This document shows, one piece after another, positions 6,897 to 16,793 of a DNA stretch of 48,384 bases (position 1 is the stretch's first letter; each line of letters opens with the position of its first letter). The notes below the pieces were generated by a model. The model did not search any database and was not told the origin of the DNA. It was given only the letters and a program-made list of their open reading frames with translations. Both the position numbers and the translations under genes were made by a program. The stretch is from Nitrospirota bacterium (GTDB lineage: Bacteria; Nitrospirota; Thermodesulfovibrionia; Thermodesulfovibrionales; Dissulfurispiraceae): assembly GCA_004321915.1 (NCBI GenBank), contig SCQE01000078.1, positions 1 through 48,384 of the forward strand, written 5' to 3'.

Positions 6897-8090
6897 TCAG
6901 GCCTTTGCTTCCTTAAGCTTCTTGATCATCATCGGCACAACATCGTAAAGGTCTCCGACTATTCCGTATGTGGCAACATTAAAGATCGGAGCTTCCTGAT
7001 TTTTGTTTATCGCAATAATCACGTCCGACGAGGACATCCCGACAAGGTGCTGCACCGCACCTGATATCCCGCAGGCAATATAAATCTTGGGGCAGACCGT
7101 CTTTCCTGTCTGTCCGACCTGATGGCTGTAAGCTATCCAGCCCTCGTCAACAGCCGCCCTTGATGAGCCTAAAGTTCCATCCAAAAGCCCTGCAAGCTCT
7201 TCAAGCAGCTTAAAGCCCTTTGCATCGCCGAGCCCCCTGCCTCCGGAAACGATAACCTCGGCCTCCTGCAGGTTAACCTTGCATGAGGATTCCTCTGTCA
7301 CGGTTTCGACAACTTTGGTTCTGCATAGCAGATTGCCTGACTCCACCTTGATAATCTCGCCGCTTCTATCCGAGACATACTCGCCCCTCTTCATAACACG
7401 GGGACGCACAGTAGCTATCTGCGGCCTGTTGTTTGGGCATAGTATCGTGGCCATTATATTGCCGCCAAAGGCCGGCCTGACTTGAAGAAGATTACCGGTT
7501 TCAGCGTCTATCTCTAAAGATGTGCAGTCCGCTGTTAGTCCTGTTTTAAGTTTTGCTGCAACTCTCGGAATAAATGAACGGCCTATAGGCGTAGCACCTG
7601 CAAGCACTATCTCCGGCTTATGTTCTGATATAAGCCTCGAAAGAAGTTCAGAACAAGGCTCATCGTTAAAGTCCTTGAAAATAGCGTCTCCGCAGAAATA
7701 GACCCTGTCAGCGCCCCATTTTACAAGCTCTTTCGCCTCATTCTCGGATGAGCCGAAGAGCACGGCAGAAAGGGTTGTCTTTCTTGCATCGGCGAGCTTT
7801 CTGCCCACGCCAAGCAGTTCAAAGGCTACGGAAGCGATGTATCCATGTCTCTGCTCGGCAAAGACCCATACGCCCTTATAATCAGAAATATCTGCGGGCT
7901 TTACTTTGTCGCCCTCTTCGGCAATCTCGATAATCGCGCCTTCAGGACAGACACTGACGCAAGCCCTGCAGAACTGGCAGTATTCATTTATAAAAGCCTT
8001 GTCGTCTTTCATCACGATTGCGGTATATGGACACGAATCTATACAGACTTGGCAGCCTACGCATTTTTCTGATCTGACCTCTATACGCAT
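6897..8090 (-). CDS. etfA: Electron transfer flavoprotein alpha subunit with N-terminal 2[4Fe-4S] ferredoxin domain
   Basis: 397 residues. Residues 1-60 carry two ferredoxin motifs, CVGCQVCIDSCP and CQFCRACVSVCP, each CxxCxxCxxxCP. The ETF alpha core follows, with LAGATPIGRSFIPRVAAKL in the N-terminal domain and the FAD-binding C-terminal domain VSGGRGLGDAKGF, SRAAVDEGWI, HQVGQTGKTVCP and IACGISGAVQHLVGM. With EtfB it forms an FAD heterodimer that passes electrons between dehydrogenases and quinone or ferredoxin. The fused ferredoxin is typical of anaerobic EtfA forms, some of which take part in electron bifurcation. The start overlaps etfB by 10 bp. Confidence 0.95.
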   Translation of the reverse strand: MRIEVRSEKCVGCQVCIDSCPYTAIVMKDDKAFINEYCQFCRACVSVCPEGAIIEIAEEGDKVKPADISDYKGVWVFAEQRHGYIASVAFELLGVGRKLADARKTTLSAVLFGSSENEAKELVKWGADRVYFCGDAIFKDFNDEPCSELLSRLISEHKPEIVLAGATPIGRSFIPRVAAKLKTGLTADCTSLEIDAETGNLLQVRPAFGGNIMATILCPNNRPQIATVRPRVMKRGEYVSDRSGEIIKVESGNLLCRTKVVETVTEESSCKVNLQEAEVIVSGGRGLGDAKGFKLLEELAGLLDGTLGSSRAAVDEGWIAYSHQVGQTGKTVCPKIYIACGISGAVQHLVGMSSSDVIIAINKNQEAPIFNVATYGIVGDLYDVVPMMIKKLKEAKA

Positions 8091-8863
8091 TTCATCACCC
8101 CCAACTCCTTCACAAGGGCATCCACCTGCTCCTCAAGGGTCCCGGAAAGCACCTTTCTGTCAACCTTGGCATCAGGGGCAAAAATATTCTTTACCTGAGT
8201 GGGAGAGCCCTTCAGCCCTACATTCTCCACCTCGGCGCCTATCGCATTTATGTCCATCTTGGTTATAACGGCCTTCTTGGCCGCCATCTTGCCTTTGAGC
8301 GAAGGCAGGCGCGGAATGTTTATCTCCTTAACAACCGTAAGCAGCACAGGCAGGGAGGACTCGACAACATCGTAACCGTCATCCATCAAACGCTGGACAC
8401 GGATGGATTTATCGGACACATCCTCCACCTTTCTCACATACGCTATGTGAGGGATGTTCAGAAATTCGGCCACTTCAGGCCCGACCTGCGCTGTGTCTCC
8501 GTCTATAGCCTGCTTGCCGCAAAGGATTATGTCAAAGCCTATCTTGTCTATCGCCTTGTAAAGCGCGTAGGATGTGGCCCATGTGTCCGCGCCCGCAAAC
8601 GCCCTGTCGGATATGAGCCTGACATCGTCGGCGCCCATCGCAATAGTCTCTCTCAACGCATCCTCGGCCTGCGGCGGCCCCATAGTTATGACCGTGACCT
8701 TTGCCCCTGTCTTATCTTTTATCTGGAGCGCGGCCTCTACAGCATGCGTGTCATAAGGATTTATGATGCTCGGAACCCCTTCTCTTATAAGGGTATTCGT
8801 CTCAGGGTTTATCCTCACCTCTGCGGTGTCAGGAACCTGTTTTATGCAGACGACAATATTCAC
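8081..8863 (-). CDS. etfB: Electron transfer flavoprotein beta subunit
   Basis: 260 residues, normal for the family. It starts MNIVVCIKQVPDTAEVRINP, contains NPYDTHAVEAALQIKD and GADDVRLISDRAFAGADTWA, and has the adenine-nucleotide-binding loop CGKQAIDGDTAQVGPEVAEF. The subunit binds AMP or a second FAD beside EtfA. DGDTAQVGPEVAE is the segment that in bifurcating ETFs contacts the extra flavin, but bifurcation cannot be decided from it alone. The stop overlaps the etfA start, so the subunits are co-translated. A 43-bp gap separates it from acpS upstream. Confidence 0.95.
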   Translation of the reverse strand: MNIVVCIKQVPDTAEVRINPETNTLIREGVPSIINPYDTHAVEAALQIKDKTGAKVTVITMGPPQAEDALRETIAMGADDVRLISDRAFAGADTWATSYALYKAIDKIGFDIILCGKQAIDGDTAQVGPEVAEFLNIPHIAYVRKVEDVSDKSIRVQRLMDDGYDVVESSLPVLLTVVKEINIPRLPSLKGKMAAKKAVITKMDINAIGAEVENVGLKGSPTQVKNIFAPDAKVDRKVLSGTLEEQVDALVKELGVMKCV

Positions 8864-8906
8864 CTAAGCCCTCCTGCAAGAATTTCTGAAACAGAAATTA
8901 TAATCT

Positions 8907-9272
8907 TTATGAGCTTTTTCTTTCAAGAACAGCCGATGCTATAGCATGGCCTTTTTCGTGTGAAACGCTCAGATGGATCATGAGTCCGGAATCGAGCGGG
9001 GACGACAGCCTGACATAAGGCCTGCCCGAAGGCTCGTTAAGTATCTCTATGTCCCTTAGTCCGCCCAGTTTTGAAAGACCTCCGAACGCCTTGATAACAG
9101 ACTCCTTGGCAGCAAAGCGCCCGGCAAAACAGGGATAAGGATTCTTGTTTTGCGAGCAATAGGCTATCTCATCAGGACTAAAAATCCTTTTTAGAAAAGT
9201 ATCGCCCCACTTTTCTACAGAGCTTTTTATCCTGCTTATCTCAACTATGTCTGTGCCGATGCCGAGAATCAT
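8907..9272 (-). CDS. acpS: Holo-[acyl-carrier-protein] synthase
   Basis: 121 residues, the family norm. MILGIGTDIVEISRI holds the Mg-binding Asp, RIFSPDEIAYC and FAGRFAAKESVIKAFG (the AKE motif) form the CoA and active-site pocket, and HLSVSHEKGHAIASAV is the C-terminal signature. It transfers 4'-phosphopantetheine from CoA to apo-ACP. It probably heads the etfBA-fabD-mdh-ndk operon. A TATAAT-like box lies on the minus strand at 9301-9306, but no matching -35 was found. Confidence 0.95.
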   Translation of the reverse strand: MILGIGTDIVEISRIKSSVEKWGDTFLKRIFSPDEIAYCSQNKNPYPCFAGRFAAKESVIKAFGGLSKLGGLRDIEILNEPSGRPYVRLSSPLDSGLMIHLSVSHEKGHAIASAVLERKSS

Positions 9273-9313
9273 GGGTTAATAAGGCAGTGTTAATAGGCTT
9301 ATTATAGATCTCA

Positions 9314-9667
9314 TTATTTTTGCTCACTCTTTAAATCTTCAAGGACTTTTTTTATTTTCGGCTTGAGTTGAGGCAATTTTTTCTTTATAACCCGCCAGAC
9401 AATATCATAGCGAATTCCAAAATACTCATGCGCGAGTTTATCCCTCATGCGCGCCAAGTCGCTCCACGGAATATCTTTTTGTCTGACTCTTACCTGTTGG
9501 GGAATATTCTTTACAGCCTCGCCGATAATCTCAAGCCGTTTTATTACTGCGTTCTTTGTCTTCTCATCCGAAACAAATTGTTCAAAATCCATATTTGCGA
9601 CAAATTCCTCGATGAAAGTTATCGACTCAACAATATCTTTCACATAAAGGGTATATTCACGCTTCAT
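9314..9667 (-). CDS. hepT: HepT-like toxin (DUF86 / HEPN RNase family)
   Basis: 117 residues, mostly helical. The catalytic HEPN motif RDKLAHEYFGI (Rx4HxY) near residues 72-82 is intact, which in characterised HepT proteins is the RNase active site that the partner antitoxin inactivates by AMPylation of the Tyr. Other family landmarks are DEKTKNAVIKRLEIIGEAVKN and YDIVWRVIKKKLPQL. The gene overlaps the 3' end of the nucleotidyltransferase gene by 4 bp, the standard antitoxin-first order of MNT-HEPN modules. It lies directly upstream of acpS, so the module has been inserted next to a core operon. Confidence 0.9.
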   Translation of the reverse strand: MKREYTLYVKDIVESITFIEEFVANMDFEQFVSDEKTKNAVIKRLEIIGEAVKNIPQQVRVRQKDIPWSDLARMRDKLAHEYFGIRYDIVWRVIKKKLPQLKPKIKKVLEDLKSEQK

Positions 9668-9957
9668 AAATAGACAACTTCCTTTAAAATTATATCTTTC
9701 AATTCAGGCCTTAAGCCTTCCCTGTCAATCAAATCAACCTTTTTCTTTAAAAGACGCTCCAGATAACGCTCAAGTTCTATAAATTCGAGCAAATCGGGTA
9801 TTTCATAAAAATCAACAAGGATGTCTATATCGCTCCTTTTTTTCTGGTCTCCCCGAACAAACGAACCGAAAATGCCGATCTCACTCACTTTATATTTTTT
9901 GCATACATTTTCTTTATTGCTTTTGATAATCGTCTTTATTTCATCTAATGTTTTCAA
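9664..9957 (-). CDS. mntA: MNT-type minimal nucleotidyltransferase antitoxin
   Basis: Start chosen at TTG 9957, with GGAGG ten bases upstream. The frame stays open to 10020 from an ATG with no ribosome binding site, and the added residues are not conserved. This gives 97 residues. EIGIFGSFVRGDQKKRSDIDILVDF is the GSx(10)DxD nucleotidyltransferase motif, complete with both metal-binding Asp residues. In HepT/MntA pairs this protein poly-AMPylates the toxin Tyr and silences it. It overlaps hepT by 4 bp. Confidence 0.88.
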   Translation of the reverse strand: MKTLDEIKTIIKSNKENVCKKYKVSEIGIFGSFVRGDQKKRSDIDILVDFYEIPDLLEFIELERYLERLLKKKVDLIDREGLRPELKDIILKEVVYL

Positions 9958-10150
9958 AACCCTTTGCCCTCCTATATTGAAGATTATAGCAAAACTATGC
10001 CCTATTGACTCGCCTGCCATCCATACCGATACCGAGGATTATGGGTTAATCTCCTGATGGTGCGTAAAATAAAAAGCCTTTTGCGGCTGTGTCTTTAAAT
10101 TGTACCTGTTTTTATAACACATTCATGCCTGTTTTTTACAAAGTCTATGT

Positions 10151-10196
10151 CATTGTTGAATCCCACATTGTTGAATCCCCGATATTCTGATAAAAT
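10151..10196 (+). promoter_or_regulatory. Candidate promoter with tandem operator-like repeats before the 84-residue gene
   Basis: The 14-mer CATTGTTGAATCCC occurs twice, at 10151-10164 and 10166-10179, one and a half helical turns apart. TTGTTG (10168-10173) and TAAAAT (10191-10196) are separated by 17 bp and could be weak -35/-10 boxes, so the second repeat would cover the -35. This layout suits autoregulation, but that is inference. Confidence 0.4.
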
Positions 10197-10214
10197 ATAT
10201 TTCAAGGGTGGCTT

Positions 10215-10469
10215 ATGAAGAAGGAGAACAAACAGAAGATTAACGATGATCTGCGCCCAGAGTATGACCTGAAGGAACTATTGAAAACAGGCGTTCGCGG
10301 AAAATATGCCCGTCGTTTTCAGGAGGGAACCAATCTGGTGCTGTTGGAGCCCGATGTTGCAGATGAATTTCCGGATGGTGAGACAGTAAATAAAACATTA
10401 AGACTGGTAATGCAGTTAAGAAAACATCCTAAGCCCAAGCCTGCTTTGAGAAGGGCAGTTCGGGCATAG
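10215..10469 (+). CDS. Small hypothetical protein, antitoxin-like
   Basis: 84 residues, ATG with AGGGTGG upstream. The sequence DDLRPEYDLKELLKTGVRGKY, then GTNLVLLEPDVADEFPDGETVNKTLR, belongs to a widespread family of small proteins (LRPEYD...GVRGKY...NLVLL.PDVA..FP) often found near toxin genes. The second half looks like a short helical segment similar to antitoxin C termini. The molecular role is not established. No toxin-like partner is next to it: about 100 bp downstream comes the end of a mobile-element repeat. It may be an orphaned antitoxin. The N terminus is lysine rich. Confidence 0.7.
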   Translation: MKKENKQKINDDLRPEYDLKELLKTGVRGKYARRFQEGTNLVLLEPDVADEFPDGETVNKTLRLVMQLRKHPKPKPALRRAVRA

Positions 10470-10541
10470 TTTGGAATGGTCAAACTATGGGGCTAATTGA
10501 ATCCGAGAAGTTGTCTTTATTTTCCCACACACATATTGCAT

Positions 10542-10556
10542 TGCAAGACCTGACCC
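10542..10556 (+). repeat. Solo copy of the RAYT-element end motif
   Basis: TGCAAGACCTGACCC is identical to the right end of the transposase element at 12323-12339 and inverted relative to the copies at 11286-11302 and 11399-11415. The preceding bases TTGCAT also match the 12317-12322 flank. It sits 13 bp before the start codon of the 211-residue gene. Confidence 0.75.
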
Positions 10557-10569
10557 TATGACCTGACTC

Positions 10570-11205
10570 ATGCTACAAACACTTACAAAAAACGCGTTTC
10601 CTGAAATAATCAGCTCTACGCTTTACGCGGTAGACGCCGGGGTGCTGCACTATGTTTATGTCGGACGAAATGCGTGGCATTCCATCTGGGTAACTCTTTA
10701 TTCGGAAGGTTGCATGCACTTATCGCTAGAGTCCGCTAAACAGTATGCCGAGAGAAATAGAACTCAGGGTTCTGTTTTCAACATCAAAGAACTTCCTTGC
10801 TTAATACTTCGTTCCGAAGGAGGGAGTGTTTTTGTAACGCAAATAAACACCCAGCATCCGCTGAAAGATTATTTGGCAACTGCTGTTCGCTCCGAGCCGG
10901 GTAGGAATCTAGTGCTAATTGAAAACGCAAGAAACTGCTACTTGGAGAAGGGTGCCCAAATGCAAGGCGCGGTTCTATCCTTTGCTTGGAATAGTCGATT
11001 CTGGGAGAAAGATCAGCCTTCAAACAATTCCGTAATTGTCGTTGCGTCTAACGACCCAGAAGAGAAAGCACAGCGTATTTTAAGCCAAGAATTTCAGTTA
11101 CGAGTATCCCGTTCATATGGCAGAAACTATCTTCTAGGTTGGCGAGAGATGCAAACAAAGATTTCGGCGGAATCCGTCGTAAGACTTGCCGCCCCCTTTG
11201 CCTAA
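10570..11205 (+). CDS. Hypothetical protein, probable integron-type gene cassette
   Basis: 211 residues with no recognised domain, signal peptide or membrane segment. Cys is rare and aromatic residues are frequent (YVGRNAWHSIWVTLYSEGC). No good ribosome binding site precedes ATG 10570. Composition and context differ from neighbouring core genes. The stop codon TAA is embedded in GCCTAAC at 11200-11206, the usual position of the R'' core of an integron attC site, and a hairpin-forming sequence follows. Cassette genes of unknown function ending this way are common in environmental integrons. The gene lies between inverted copies of the RAYT end motif (10542 and 11286). Function unknown. Confidence 0.6.
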   Translation: MLQTLTKNAFPEIISSTLYAVDAGVLHYVYVGRNAWHSIWVTLYSEGCMHLSLESAKQYAERNRTQGSVFNIKELPCLILRSEGGSVFVTQINTQHPLKDYLATAVRSEPGRNLVLIENARNCYLEKGAQMQGAVLSFAWNSRFWEKDQPSNNSVIVVASNDPEEKAQRILSQEFQLRVSRSYGRNYLLGWREMQTKISAESVVRLAAPFA

Positions 11206-11261
11206 CACCACGCAGTTGAGCGGCTCACTCCTGAACCTTCACTCCGCTGCGCTACGTGAAG
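11200..11261 (+). other. Half attC-like recombination site
   Basis: GCCTAAC (11200-11206) fits the RYYYAAC core and is followed by CACCACGCAGTTGAGCGG, an L''-like arm. CTTCAC (11237-11242) pairs with GTGAAG (11256-11261) around a CCGCTGCGCTAC-like terminal loop. The right arm and GTTRRRY core expected next are absent, and a transposable-element end begins about 20 bp later. Likely a broken attC. Confidence 0.45.
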
Positions 11262-11280
11262 AACCAAGAGTTCGTCAGCA

Positions 11281-11501
11281 CACAATGGGGTCAGGTCTTG
11301 CATCGTGCAGAAATATCTTTCTCTATTTCCGTAACCCGCTTGACAGCTCTGCTTATTGTCGAATAGTGCACCTTAAACCCCTCTGCAACAATACACAATG
11401 GGGTCAGGTCTTGCATCGTGCAGAAACCCCTTTCTCTCTTTCTGTCACCCGCTTGACAGCTCTGCTTATTGTAGAATAGTGCACCTTAAACCCCTCTGCA
11501 A
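11281..11501. repeat. Tandem duplication of the RAYT element 3' end
   Basis: Two 108-bp copies, 11281-11388 and 11394-11501, are repeated with a period of 113 bp and differ at only a handful of bases. Each begins CACAATGGGGTCAGGTCTTG and ends CCCCTCTGCAA. The right copy is the functional 3' end of the transposase gene, coding for its last residues. The left copy is a detached duplicate of the same end. Confidence 0.9.
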
Positions 11502-12339
11502 TCTCTCTCAAGGTATATCCATATTTTACATGCGCATCATAAATCTGCCGGTCTTTATCATCATCAGCCTTCTTTCCGATTCCTTTGAGCAGTTCTTTCA
11601 GCGGCGGCCTTGTAGCGTGACGCTGCTCTTTCGGCACTTCCTTTATATCCTGCTTTCCCAGCAAAAGGTTTTCAAATCTATCGACAAATTCATCATGCCC
11701 GAGTATCAACTGCCCGCGAACAGCCTTCAATGGCGATTCCTCGCTCATGCCGCTCCGCACAAACTCTCTGTACCTCTGCACTGCGTTCTCTCTCTTTTCT
11801 CCGAACTGTAAAAGTATCCAATCCGTCGTCAGGCAAGAAACTTTTATGTTTTTTCCGATTGTGGCGTTATAGCTGCTCCATCCCCAGTCTCCGGGACTTT
11901 TCGCCAATCCCGCTCTCACCGGATTCAGTACGACATAACGGCACAGTTCAAGAAGATAGCTATCTTTATCAACGAGAATTGCCTTGTACCTTCCCTGCAA
12001 TATGTGCCCAACTCTCTGGTGTCTGCGATTAAATCGCTGTGTATAAACTCCGTTAAGCTGTCTCATTCCTTTTGACAGATTGCCTTCCGTGGTCTCAACC
12101 AACAGGTGATAATGATTGCCCATAAGGCAATAGGCATGCAGTATCCATGAGTAACGTTTTACTATAGAGCAAAGGGTGTCCAGAAAATCGGAGCAATCGT
12201 TTTCATCAGGGAAGATGGTCTCACGCGCGTTGCCTCTTGAGGTCACATGATATACAGCTCCGGGGATTTCTATTCTCAGCGGCCTTGCCATGGATAAATG
12301 ATACCATGCTTTTATGTTGCATTGCAAGACCTGACCCCA
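11399..12339. mobile_element. RAYT (Y1 transposase) element with 17-bp inverted ends
   Basis: TGGGGTCAGGTCTTGCA at 11399-11415 is the exact reverse complement of 12323-12339, and the single gene between them is a REP-associated tyrosine transposase. The right end has interrupted the dnaJ-like gene. A further duplicate of the left end lies at 11286-11302. Confidence 0.8.
11404..12291 (-). CDS. REP-associated tyrosine transposase (Y1/HUH family)
   Basis: The start is placed at ATG 12291 (MARPLRIEIPGAVYHVTSRG), the conserved beginning of this family; an upstream in-frame ATG would run into the element end. About 295 residues. GNHYHLLVET is the HUH metal-binding motif, and CRYVVLNPVRAGL contains the likely nucleophilic Tyr of the Y1 domain. 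After the catalytic domain (about 1-170) a C-terminal region ends in YTLREIAEGFKVHYSTISRA, a helix-turn-helix that probably helps DNA recognition. Such enzymes cut and join single-stranded DNA at REP-like hairpins. The gene looks intact. Confidence 0.9.
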   Translation of the reverse strand: MARPLRIEIPGAVYHVTSRGNARETIFPDENDCSDFLDTLCSIVKRYSWILHAYCLMGNHYHLLVETTEGNLSKGMRQLNGVYTQRFNRRHQRVGHILQGRYKAILVDKDSYLLELCRYVVLNPVRAGLAKSPGDWGWSSYNATIGKNIKVSCLTTDWILLQFGEKRENAVQRYREFVRSGMSEESPLKAVRGQLILGHDEFVDRFENLLLGKQDIKEVPKEQRHATRPPLKELLKGIGKKADDDKDRQIYDAHVKYGYTLREIAEGFKVHYSTISRAVKRVTEREKGVSARCKT

Positions 12340-12785
12340 AATCTATGCACAAAACCCAAGGAAAATGTTATCACCATACCAACGAAACCAAAAAGCAACA
12401 TGAACAGTGCCCCTGAATCTGGCATATTATAACGCAAATATTTCTTGATTGCCGTTATTCTTGATGAATAACTTTTTGAGGCATGAAAATCGGATCTATC
12501 ATTATATTGAGTGGACTGAGCAGTATTTTTAGAATCATACCTCTGTTCTGCAAAAGGCTTAGAGGGTTTTTGGTACGAATTATTAGTTAAATACTTTTGT
12601 ATTTCCTCATAAGCTTTATTTATTTGTTGTAGTTTTTTTTGAGCTTTTGGATGCAACTTTTCATCATGAATATGCTTGTCTGGATGCCAAACTTTGACTA
12701 AATCCCTATAAGCTTCTTTTATTTCTGTTGGAGAAGCCCCAAGTTCTAGACCAAGAGTTGCATAGTGCTTGCTTATGTCAGACAT
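12312..12785 (-). CDS. DnaJ-domain membrane protein, C terminus replaced by mobile-element sequence
   Basis: 157 residues. The J domain is residues 6-66, with HPD in VKVWHPDKHIHDE and the helix KAQKKLQQINKAYEEIQKYL. It would stimulate the ATPase of an Hsp70. A polar Gln/Ser/Asn-rich linker follows, then one hydrophobic segment (FMLLFGFVGMVITFSLGFVH, about 128-147), so the J domain would face the cytoplasm from the membrane. The last eight residues, GVRSCNAT, are encoded by the right end of the RAYT element (12323-12339), and the stop lies inside that element. The original C terminus has therefore been lost. Confidence 0.75.
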   Translation of the reverse strand: MSDISKHYATLGLELGASPTEIKEAYRDLVKVWHPDKHIHDEKLHPKAQKKLQQINKAYEEIQKYLTNNSYQKPSKPFAEQRYDSKNTAQSTQYNDRSDFHASKSYSSRITAIKKYLRYNMPDSGALFMLLFGFVGMVITFSLGFVHRFGVRSCNAT

Positions 12786-16239: not shown

Positions 16240-16260
16240 CAAAACTTATTCATGGAGATA

Positions 16261-16524
16261 ATGGAGTTTCAATGGGACGATAACAATATCGCCCACATTG
16301 CACGGCACAGCATATCGCCTGATGAGGTTGAAGACGTGGCATTTGATGATGACCCTTGGATTAGAAAGGGTAAGAGCGGCACTCGCTATATGCTTGGGTA
16401 TACCATAGGCGGAAGATATCTGTTTGTCGTATATGCCTTGAAAGGCAAGGGCACTGTAAGGGTTATTACAGCAATGGATATGGACGATAAGATAAAAAGA
16501 CTTTACAAGAAAAGGAGCAAATGA
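16261..16524 (+). CDS. brnT: BrnT-like toxin
   Basis: Start chosen at ATG 16261, with GGAG directly upstream; an in-frame ATG nine bases earlier has no such site. 87 residues. MEFQWDDNNIAHIARHSISP is the DUF497/BrnT opening (FxWDxxKxxxNxxxHxI pattern), followed by EVEDVAFDDDPWIRKGKSGT and the beta strands YLFVVYALKGKGTVRVITAM. BrnT proteins are RelE-fold ribonucleases. The C-terminal KIKRLYKKRSK resembles the usual basic end. The stop overlaps the antitoxin start (ATGA), and the toxin-first order is typical of BrnTA. Confidence 0.82.
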   Translation: MEFQWDDNNIAHIARHSISPDEVEDVAFDDDPWIRKGKSGTRYMLGYTIGGRYLFVVYALKGKGTVRVITAMDMDDKIKRLYKKRSK

Positions 16525-16793
16525 TGAAAAATATGCCTGTTATGAAAACAGAAGAAGATGAAATAAAGTTCTGGGAAAGCCATTCTATCGGAGATTACTG
16601 GGATGACCTTCAGAAATGCGGGGATGTCTTTAAAAGACCTAAACTCACTCCTGTAACCTTAAAGTTTGACCCGCTGGTACTGAAAAAGATAAAGATGCTT
16701 GCGCGTAAAAGAGGGCTTTCCTATAACGCCTATATTCGTTATCTGCTTGCAAAGAGCGTCGAGAGGGATATAACCGCTGCTGTCAGCCGATAG
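16521..16793 (+). CDS. brnA: BrnA/CopG-like antitoxin
   Basis: 90 residues, coupled to the toxin gene by a 4-bp overlap. The N-terminal half (EDEIKFWESHSIGDYWDDLQ) is acidic and likely wraps the toxin. The C-terminal half, VTLKFDPLVLKKIKMLARKR followed by LSYNAYIRYLLAKSVER, is a ribbon-helix-helix DNA-binding fold. This arrangement, toxin-binding part first and RHH last, matches BrnA-type and other CopG-like antitoxins with the KFWExH signature. It should repress its own promoter through the dyad at 16207-16239. Confidence 0.8.
   Translation: MMKNMPVMKTEEDEIKFWESHSIGDYWDDLQKCGDVFKRPKLTPVTLKFDPLVLKKIKMLARKRGLSYNAYIRYLLAKSVERDITAAVSR

What the first reader, a model, noticed from the sequence alone, without database searches (positions are those of the whole stretch)
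10570..11261. Integron-cassette-like gene with a half attC site
The 211-residue orphan gene ends with its TAA inside GCCTAAC, followed by an L''-like arm and a terminal-loop hairpin (11237-11261). This is how environmental integron cassettes usually end. The right half of attC is missing where a RAYT element end begins. No integrase gene is in the window, so this would be a stranded cassette.
Basis: partly seen in the sequence, partly recalled or inferred. Interest (0 to 1): 0.55.

Follow-up and report, generated by a model that had tools for sequence, protein, structure and literature searches.

The report
Stranded integron scrap with palindrome half
A lone, uncharacterised mobile gene is followed by a broken piece of a hairpin DNA element that, in related bacteria, sits where integron gene cassettes are joined; the piece is a dead remnant here, but the element itself looks undescribed.

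Summary
In detail: gene 10570-11205 (+) ends in GCCTAAC, an attC-like arm and hairpin follow, and a RAYT transposon end cuts them off at about 11281. It is not half of an ordinary attC: a covariance model of 20 ordinary attCs scores only 5.8 bits. Instead 11217-11282 (+) matches, at 30.1 bits, E 3.4e-6, a ~140-nt palindromic element that I modelled from relatives (changes on both sides in 15 of 40 pairs). The element occurs in 18 of 100 relatives. In 15 of 35 copies it begins exactly at a cassette junction: 11 after an attC, 4 after a conserved attI-like sequence. The window's own genome has one full copy directly after an attC, several attC arrays and a broken integrase. So the locus is integron debris, in the gene's own direction. 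Whether the gene is a true cassette stays open: one homologue lineage lies in a Vibrio cassette array, four homologues do not. The gene's family is unknown. The window feature is inert; the palindromic element is the interesting part.

The parts
10542..10559 (+). REP/RAYT-type end (TGCAAGACCTGACCCTAT), solo, just before the gene start
   Evidence: inverted repeat I1; the 15-mer occurs at 4 places on this contig and, with 1 mismatch, at 4 others in the genome
10570..11205 (+). 211-aa mobile accessory gene of an unnamed protein family
   Evidence: no family hit in Pfam, NCBIfam, PHROGs or PADLOC above noise; homologues
11200..11206 (+). GCCTAAC, R''-like box containing the stop codon
   Evidence: fits RYYYAAC (consensus recalled)
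11211..11224 (+). left arm of the palindrome (ACGCAGTTGAGCGG)
   Evidence: alignment A6; in isolation also scores as the complement of an attC right half, 12.3 bits
11217..11282 (+). partial copy of the palindromic integron-associated element (model positions 41-125 of 141); inner hairpin kept; head hairpin, third hairpin and right arm missing
   Evidence: 30.1 bits, E 3.4e-6; blastn
11281..11501 (-). tandemly doubled right end of the RAYT element that cuts the palindrome
   Evidence: D1, 94% over 109 nt
11404..12327 (-). RAYT (Y1/IS200-like transposase) gene
12323..12337 (+). other RAYT end

Best explanation
The locus is a worn scrap of an integron cassette array. Gene 10570-11205 reads in the array direction. 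Directly after its stop codon lies the left part of a ~140-nt palindromic element that, in relatives, occupies the start of a cassette right at the attC or attI crossover. A RAYT/REP insertion (with loss of sequence) removed the rest of the palindrome and whatever cassette followed. SHOWN: the match to the element, its + orientation, its place at cassette junctions in relatives, the resident arrays and the broken integrase of the same genome. INFERRED: that the gene arrived as a cassette; that GCCTAAC is what is left of its attC, fused by a deletion to the next cassette's palindrome; that the RAYT made the break. As it stands it cannot be recombined: without the right arm no recombinogenic hairpin can fold.
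For: Element model hit at 11217-11282 +; 61-nt 80% match to G089 and 50-nt 78% match to G030. Element copies in 18 of 100 genomes. Of 35 copies tested, 11 have an attC ending exactly at the element's TT (at most 3 of 300 shuffles as good); 4 more share an attI-like upstream, two of these with an integrase-like gene running away from it. Own genome: full copy at C92:8270-8405 with an attC directly before it, 7 attC hits on C136, truncated IntI at a contig end of C49. One homologue lineage lies in a Vibrio array with VCR-like repeats. The gene is absent from 394 of 395 phylum genomes searched, the exception being this genome.
Against: The ordinary attC model does not see it, and the genome-wide element search with stricter filters listed only the C92 copy of this genome, not the window's. 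The closest homologues (40-44%) sit in viral/prophage contigs without attC hits, as does a Paraburkholderia one. In all 14 aligned copies the palindrome follows a head hairpin, which the window lacks. The missing half is not on the far side of the RAYT (read by eye; pattern search). No full attC in the window.
Confidence: 0.6

Rival explanations
1. The arm is the right half (L'-R') of an ordinary attC on the MINUS strand, so the gene stands backwards in, or next to, the cassette array.
For: Minus-strand GCCGCTCAAC + 8 nt + GTTAGGC scores 12.3 bits against 43 real sites, equal to the best of them, and 5.3 bits better than the plus reading; the only viral contigs match of an 18-base pattern made from it is inside a real attC in that orientation. 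Extrahelical bases belong to the R''-L'' arm (PMC2727003, passages) and are absent here.
Against: The palindromic element's left arm also lacks extrahelical bases in the plus direction, so the rule cannot decide; its inner hairpin, which is not symmetric in sequence, matches on plus. A spacer of 8 is outside the 4-7 seen in 43 sites.
Confidence: 0.15
2. The gene is an ordinary mobile accessory gene (phage or plasmid cargo) and only by chance lies beside a loose copy of the palindromic element, which can move or be left behind on its own.
For: Homologues in prophage-like contigs and Paraburkholderia without attC hits; 20 of 35 element copies have no recognised attC or attI-like start.
Against: The Vibrio homologue is in an array; the arm begins within a few bases of the stop codon, which itself lies in an R''-like box.
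Confidence: 0.22
3. Gene plus half-site is a unit carried between two RAYT/REP ends and moved by the transposase.
For: 18-bp inverted ends at 10542-10559 and 11285-11302.
Against: The ends face the wrong way: the RAYT gene's own ends have GGGG outside, whereas the gene lies on the outside of both; solo ends occur elsewhere in the genome.
Confidence: 0.03

Closest known systems
Integron gene cassette / attC site
   Same: R''-like GCCTAAC over the stop codon, GTTGAGC arm, hairpin; resident arrays in the genome
   Different: No L', no R', no extrahelical bases, no canonical-model hit
ORF-less integron cassettes (PMC6557892, search listing only)
   Same: A short stretch between two crossover points without a gene would describe the palindromic element
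   Different: Here a conserved, covarying three-hairpin palindrome in many genomes, most copies with ATT instead of GTT at the 3' end
REP-associated tyrosine transposase (RAYT) elements
   Same: Y1_Tnp gene with inverted REP-like ends
   Different: It only borders the finding; its ends face away from the gene

Membership tests
attC recombination site | R'', L'', L', R' boxes that fold into one hairpin | tested here: not met
   model R1 gives 5.8 bits, E 1.6, pairing only boxes within 22 nt; DNA fold z 0.40
attC recombination site | extrahelical bases in the R''-L'' arm (PMC2727003, passages) | tested here: not met
   GTTGAGCGGC against GTTCGAGCGGAC-type arms in a set of 43 sites
Integron gene cassette | single gene followed closely by its attC | tested here: inconclusive
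   GCCTAAC over the stop and a partial palindrome only
Integron gene cassette | homologues found in cassette arrays | tested here: inconclusive
   Vibrio lineage in an array; Paraburkholderia and three viral contigs not
Integron | IntI and attI next to the cassette | tested here: not met
   no TIGR02249 hit on this contig; only a truncated IntI elsewhere, C49:21157-21608
Palindromic cassette-junction element (named in this report) | significant score to model R2 | tested here: met
   30.1 bits, E 3.4e-6
Palindromic cassette-junction element (named in this report) | all parts: head hairpin, left arm, inner hairpin, third hairpin, right arm | tested here: not met
   only left arm and inner hairpin present
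RAYT/REP element | Y1 transposase with inverted short ends | tested here: met

The most novel reading that the evidence does not exclude
The ~140-nt palindrome is an undescribed integron component: a gene-less mini-cassette, or a leader shared by captured genes, which sits exactly at the attC/attI crossover in front of cassette genes, is kept by selection on its fold, and can be left stranded outside arrays, as in this window.
Probability: 0.5. Interest if true: 0.75.

Novelty: new variant of a known kind. Interest (0 to 1): 0.5.

Why it matters
The window's piece is dead DNA, but following it exposed a conserved, structured element placed at integron crossover points in related genomes (18 of 100 carry it). 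If it is a mini-cassette, it is an attC-like site that has lost the features that choose the strand; if it is a leader, it may set how cassette genes are transcribed or translated, an old question for genes far from the integron promoter.

Tried and rejected
Simple attC finders of my own missed Vibrio repeats and many arrays. The ordinary-attC model also misses the Vibrio repeats in L010/L022, so the Vibrio array rests and gene content. DnaJ-domain gene 12312-12785 (-) as the cassette behind a minus-strand attC: relatives show no shared gene order, and the idea was dropped with the minus reading. First AlphaFold model (3 sequences) pLDDT 40.6; second (6 sequences) 70.5, pTM 0.74, no fold match with E<=0.001 in PDB or BFVD, none by sequence in PDB. 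Rfam: nothing at gathering score in the window and nothing relevant on element loci. Plasmid blastn with the half-site: only chance-level hits. attG insertion (Loot et al. 2024, seen only as a reference entry and a mention) was considered and cannot be told from these data.

Full report
OBSERVATION. The gene 10570-11205 (+) ends inside GCCTAAC; ACCACGCAGTTGAGCGGC and a small hairpin follow; a RAYT end, tandemly doubled, begins at about 11281. The same RAYT-type end, inverted, lies at 10542-10559, so the gene sits on the outer side of two such ends.

GENE. Of 100 nearby genomes only this one has it, and of 395 of the phylum only this one. Homologues: a Vibrio plasmid gene, 31.8%, in a row of small genes separated by VCR-like repeats, with a closely similar place in V. 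coralliilyticus, and a Paraburkholderia copy; three viral contigs at 40-44%. The ordinary attC model finds nothing around the viral and Paraburkholderia copies. In L123 the neighbouring ORFs read to me like a cytosine methyltransferase and a Vsr-type endonuclease (not searched). The family shares a GRNAWHS...CMH...ELPAL-like core. No family, sequence or fold match. My guess, weak, is a defence or toxin-like accessory protein.

GENOME. The same genome holds attC arrays: 11 model hits at E<=1, 15 in the fetched stretches, 7 of them on C136, with small toxin-antitoxin-like genes by my reading. A TIGR02249 integrase survives only as two pieces in different frames, model positions 1-78 and 215-315, at the end of contig C49. 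In the phylum 15 of 118 genomes have an integrase over the cut-off.

HALF-SITE, FIRST PASS. Against 43 attC sites, none of which holds the pattern that had fetched part of the loci, the arm scores as the complement of a right half, 12.3 bits, 5.3 better than as a left half; shuffled windows reach 12.2 bits 0.0033 times each. Bouvier et al. 2009 (PMC2727003, passages) place the extrahelical bases in the R''-L'' arm, and the arm here has none. This pointed to the minus strand.

HALF-SITE, SECOND PASS. A DNA search of 100 relatives then found 11214-11274 at 80% identity in G089 and a shorter 78% match in G030. There it is the left part of a strong palindrome. Collecting copies (13 of 150 genomes) and aligning 14 gave a consensus with 40 pairs, 15 with changes on both sides: a head hairpin starting TTCCCCCC, then AA(T/C)GCGGCAGTTGAGCGG, an inner hairpin, a third hairpin, and CCGCTCAACTGCCGC(A/G)TT. 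The model of it hits the window at 11217-11282 on plus and 18 of 100 relatives (stricter filters, which list the C92 copy of this genome but not the window's partial one). The left arm of this element also lacks extrahelical bases on plus, so the first-pass argument for minus falls away, while the asymmetric inner hairpin fixes plus, the gene's own direction.

WHERE THE ELEMENT SITS. Of 35 copies tested, 11 are preceded by an attC whose crossover GTT (once ATT) is the element's own first TT, with at most 3 of 300 shuffles as good; an earlier count on 20 copies, partly the same, gave 7. Four more (L138, L165, L167, L168) share an upstream sequence ending AATAACTGGTT; in L167 and L168 an integrase-like gene runs away from it, so I read it as attI. 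That makes 15 of 35; the other 20 have no recognised junction, one of them (L172, 307-457) just missing the threshold at 6 of 300. Most copies are followed within about 50 nt by an ATG, which by itself is weak evidence. Copies come from related genomes and are not independent. In this genome the full copy on C92 follows an attC directly.

READING. The window therefore keeps a gene, an R''-like box over its stop, and the left part of the palindrome, all in array direction, cut by a RAYT end. Normal order would be gene - attC - palindrome - next gene. A deletion from the gene's attC into the palindrome, and the RAYT insertion, explain what is left; both are inferred. The remnant cannot work as a recombination site.

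LITERATURE. Searches listed no title or abstract start that describes such an element; I read passages only of PMC8352920, PMC8876359, PMC11023631, PMC11641012, PMC12444791, PMC9668308 and PMC2727003, and of PMC6557892 (ORF-less cassettes) only the listing. Absence from these is not proof that it is unpublished.

Noticed in passing
L101 (own genome C136) 7322-12135, minus: Resident cassette array: 7 attC model hits with small toxin-antitoxin-like genes by eye, running to the contig end.
   Followed up: partly
L019 6140-6612 (own genome C49 end): Integron integrase reduced to two pieces in different frames at a contig end; middle of the protein missing.
   Followed up: partly
L050 220-12926: An IMG/VR contig carries attC hits at 16 places, some on either strand (18 rows, 2 of them mirror hits); integrons in phage genomes are reported in PMC9892861 (listing only).
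   Followed up: no
L134 116-129 and 196-254 (G030): A RAYT end (CAAGACCTGACCCC) lies within 70 bp of an attC in a second genome of the family; possibly this transposon often lands in cassette arrays.
   Followed up: no
window 9314-10020, minus: HepT/nucleotidyltransferase pair (Pfam hits) close to the gene.
   Followed up: no
window 16252-16793, plus: Two small adjacent ORFs that read like a BrnT/BrnA toxin-antitoxin pair (by eye).
   Followed up: no
L123 4962-8854: Closest homologue of the gene lies beside ORFs reading like a restriction-modification set in a phage-like contig (by eye).
   Followed up: no
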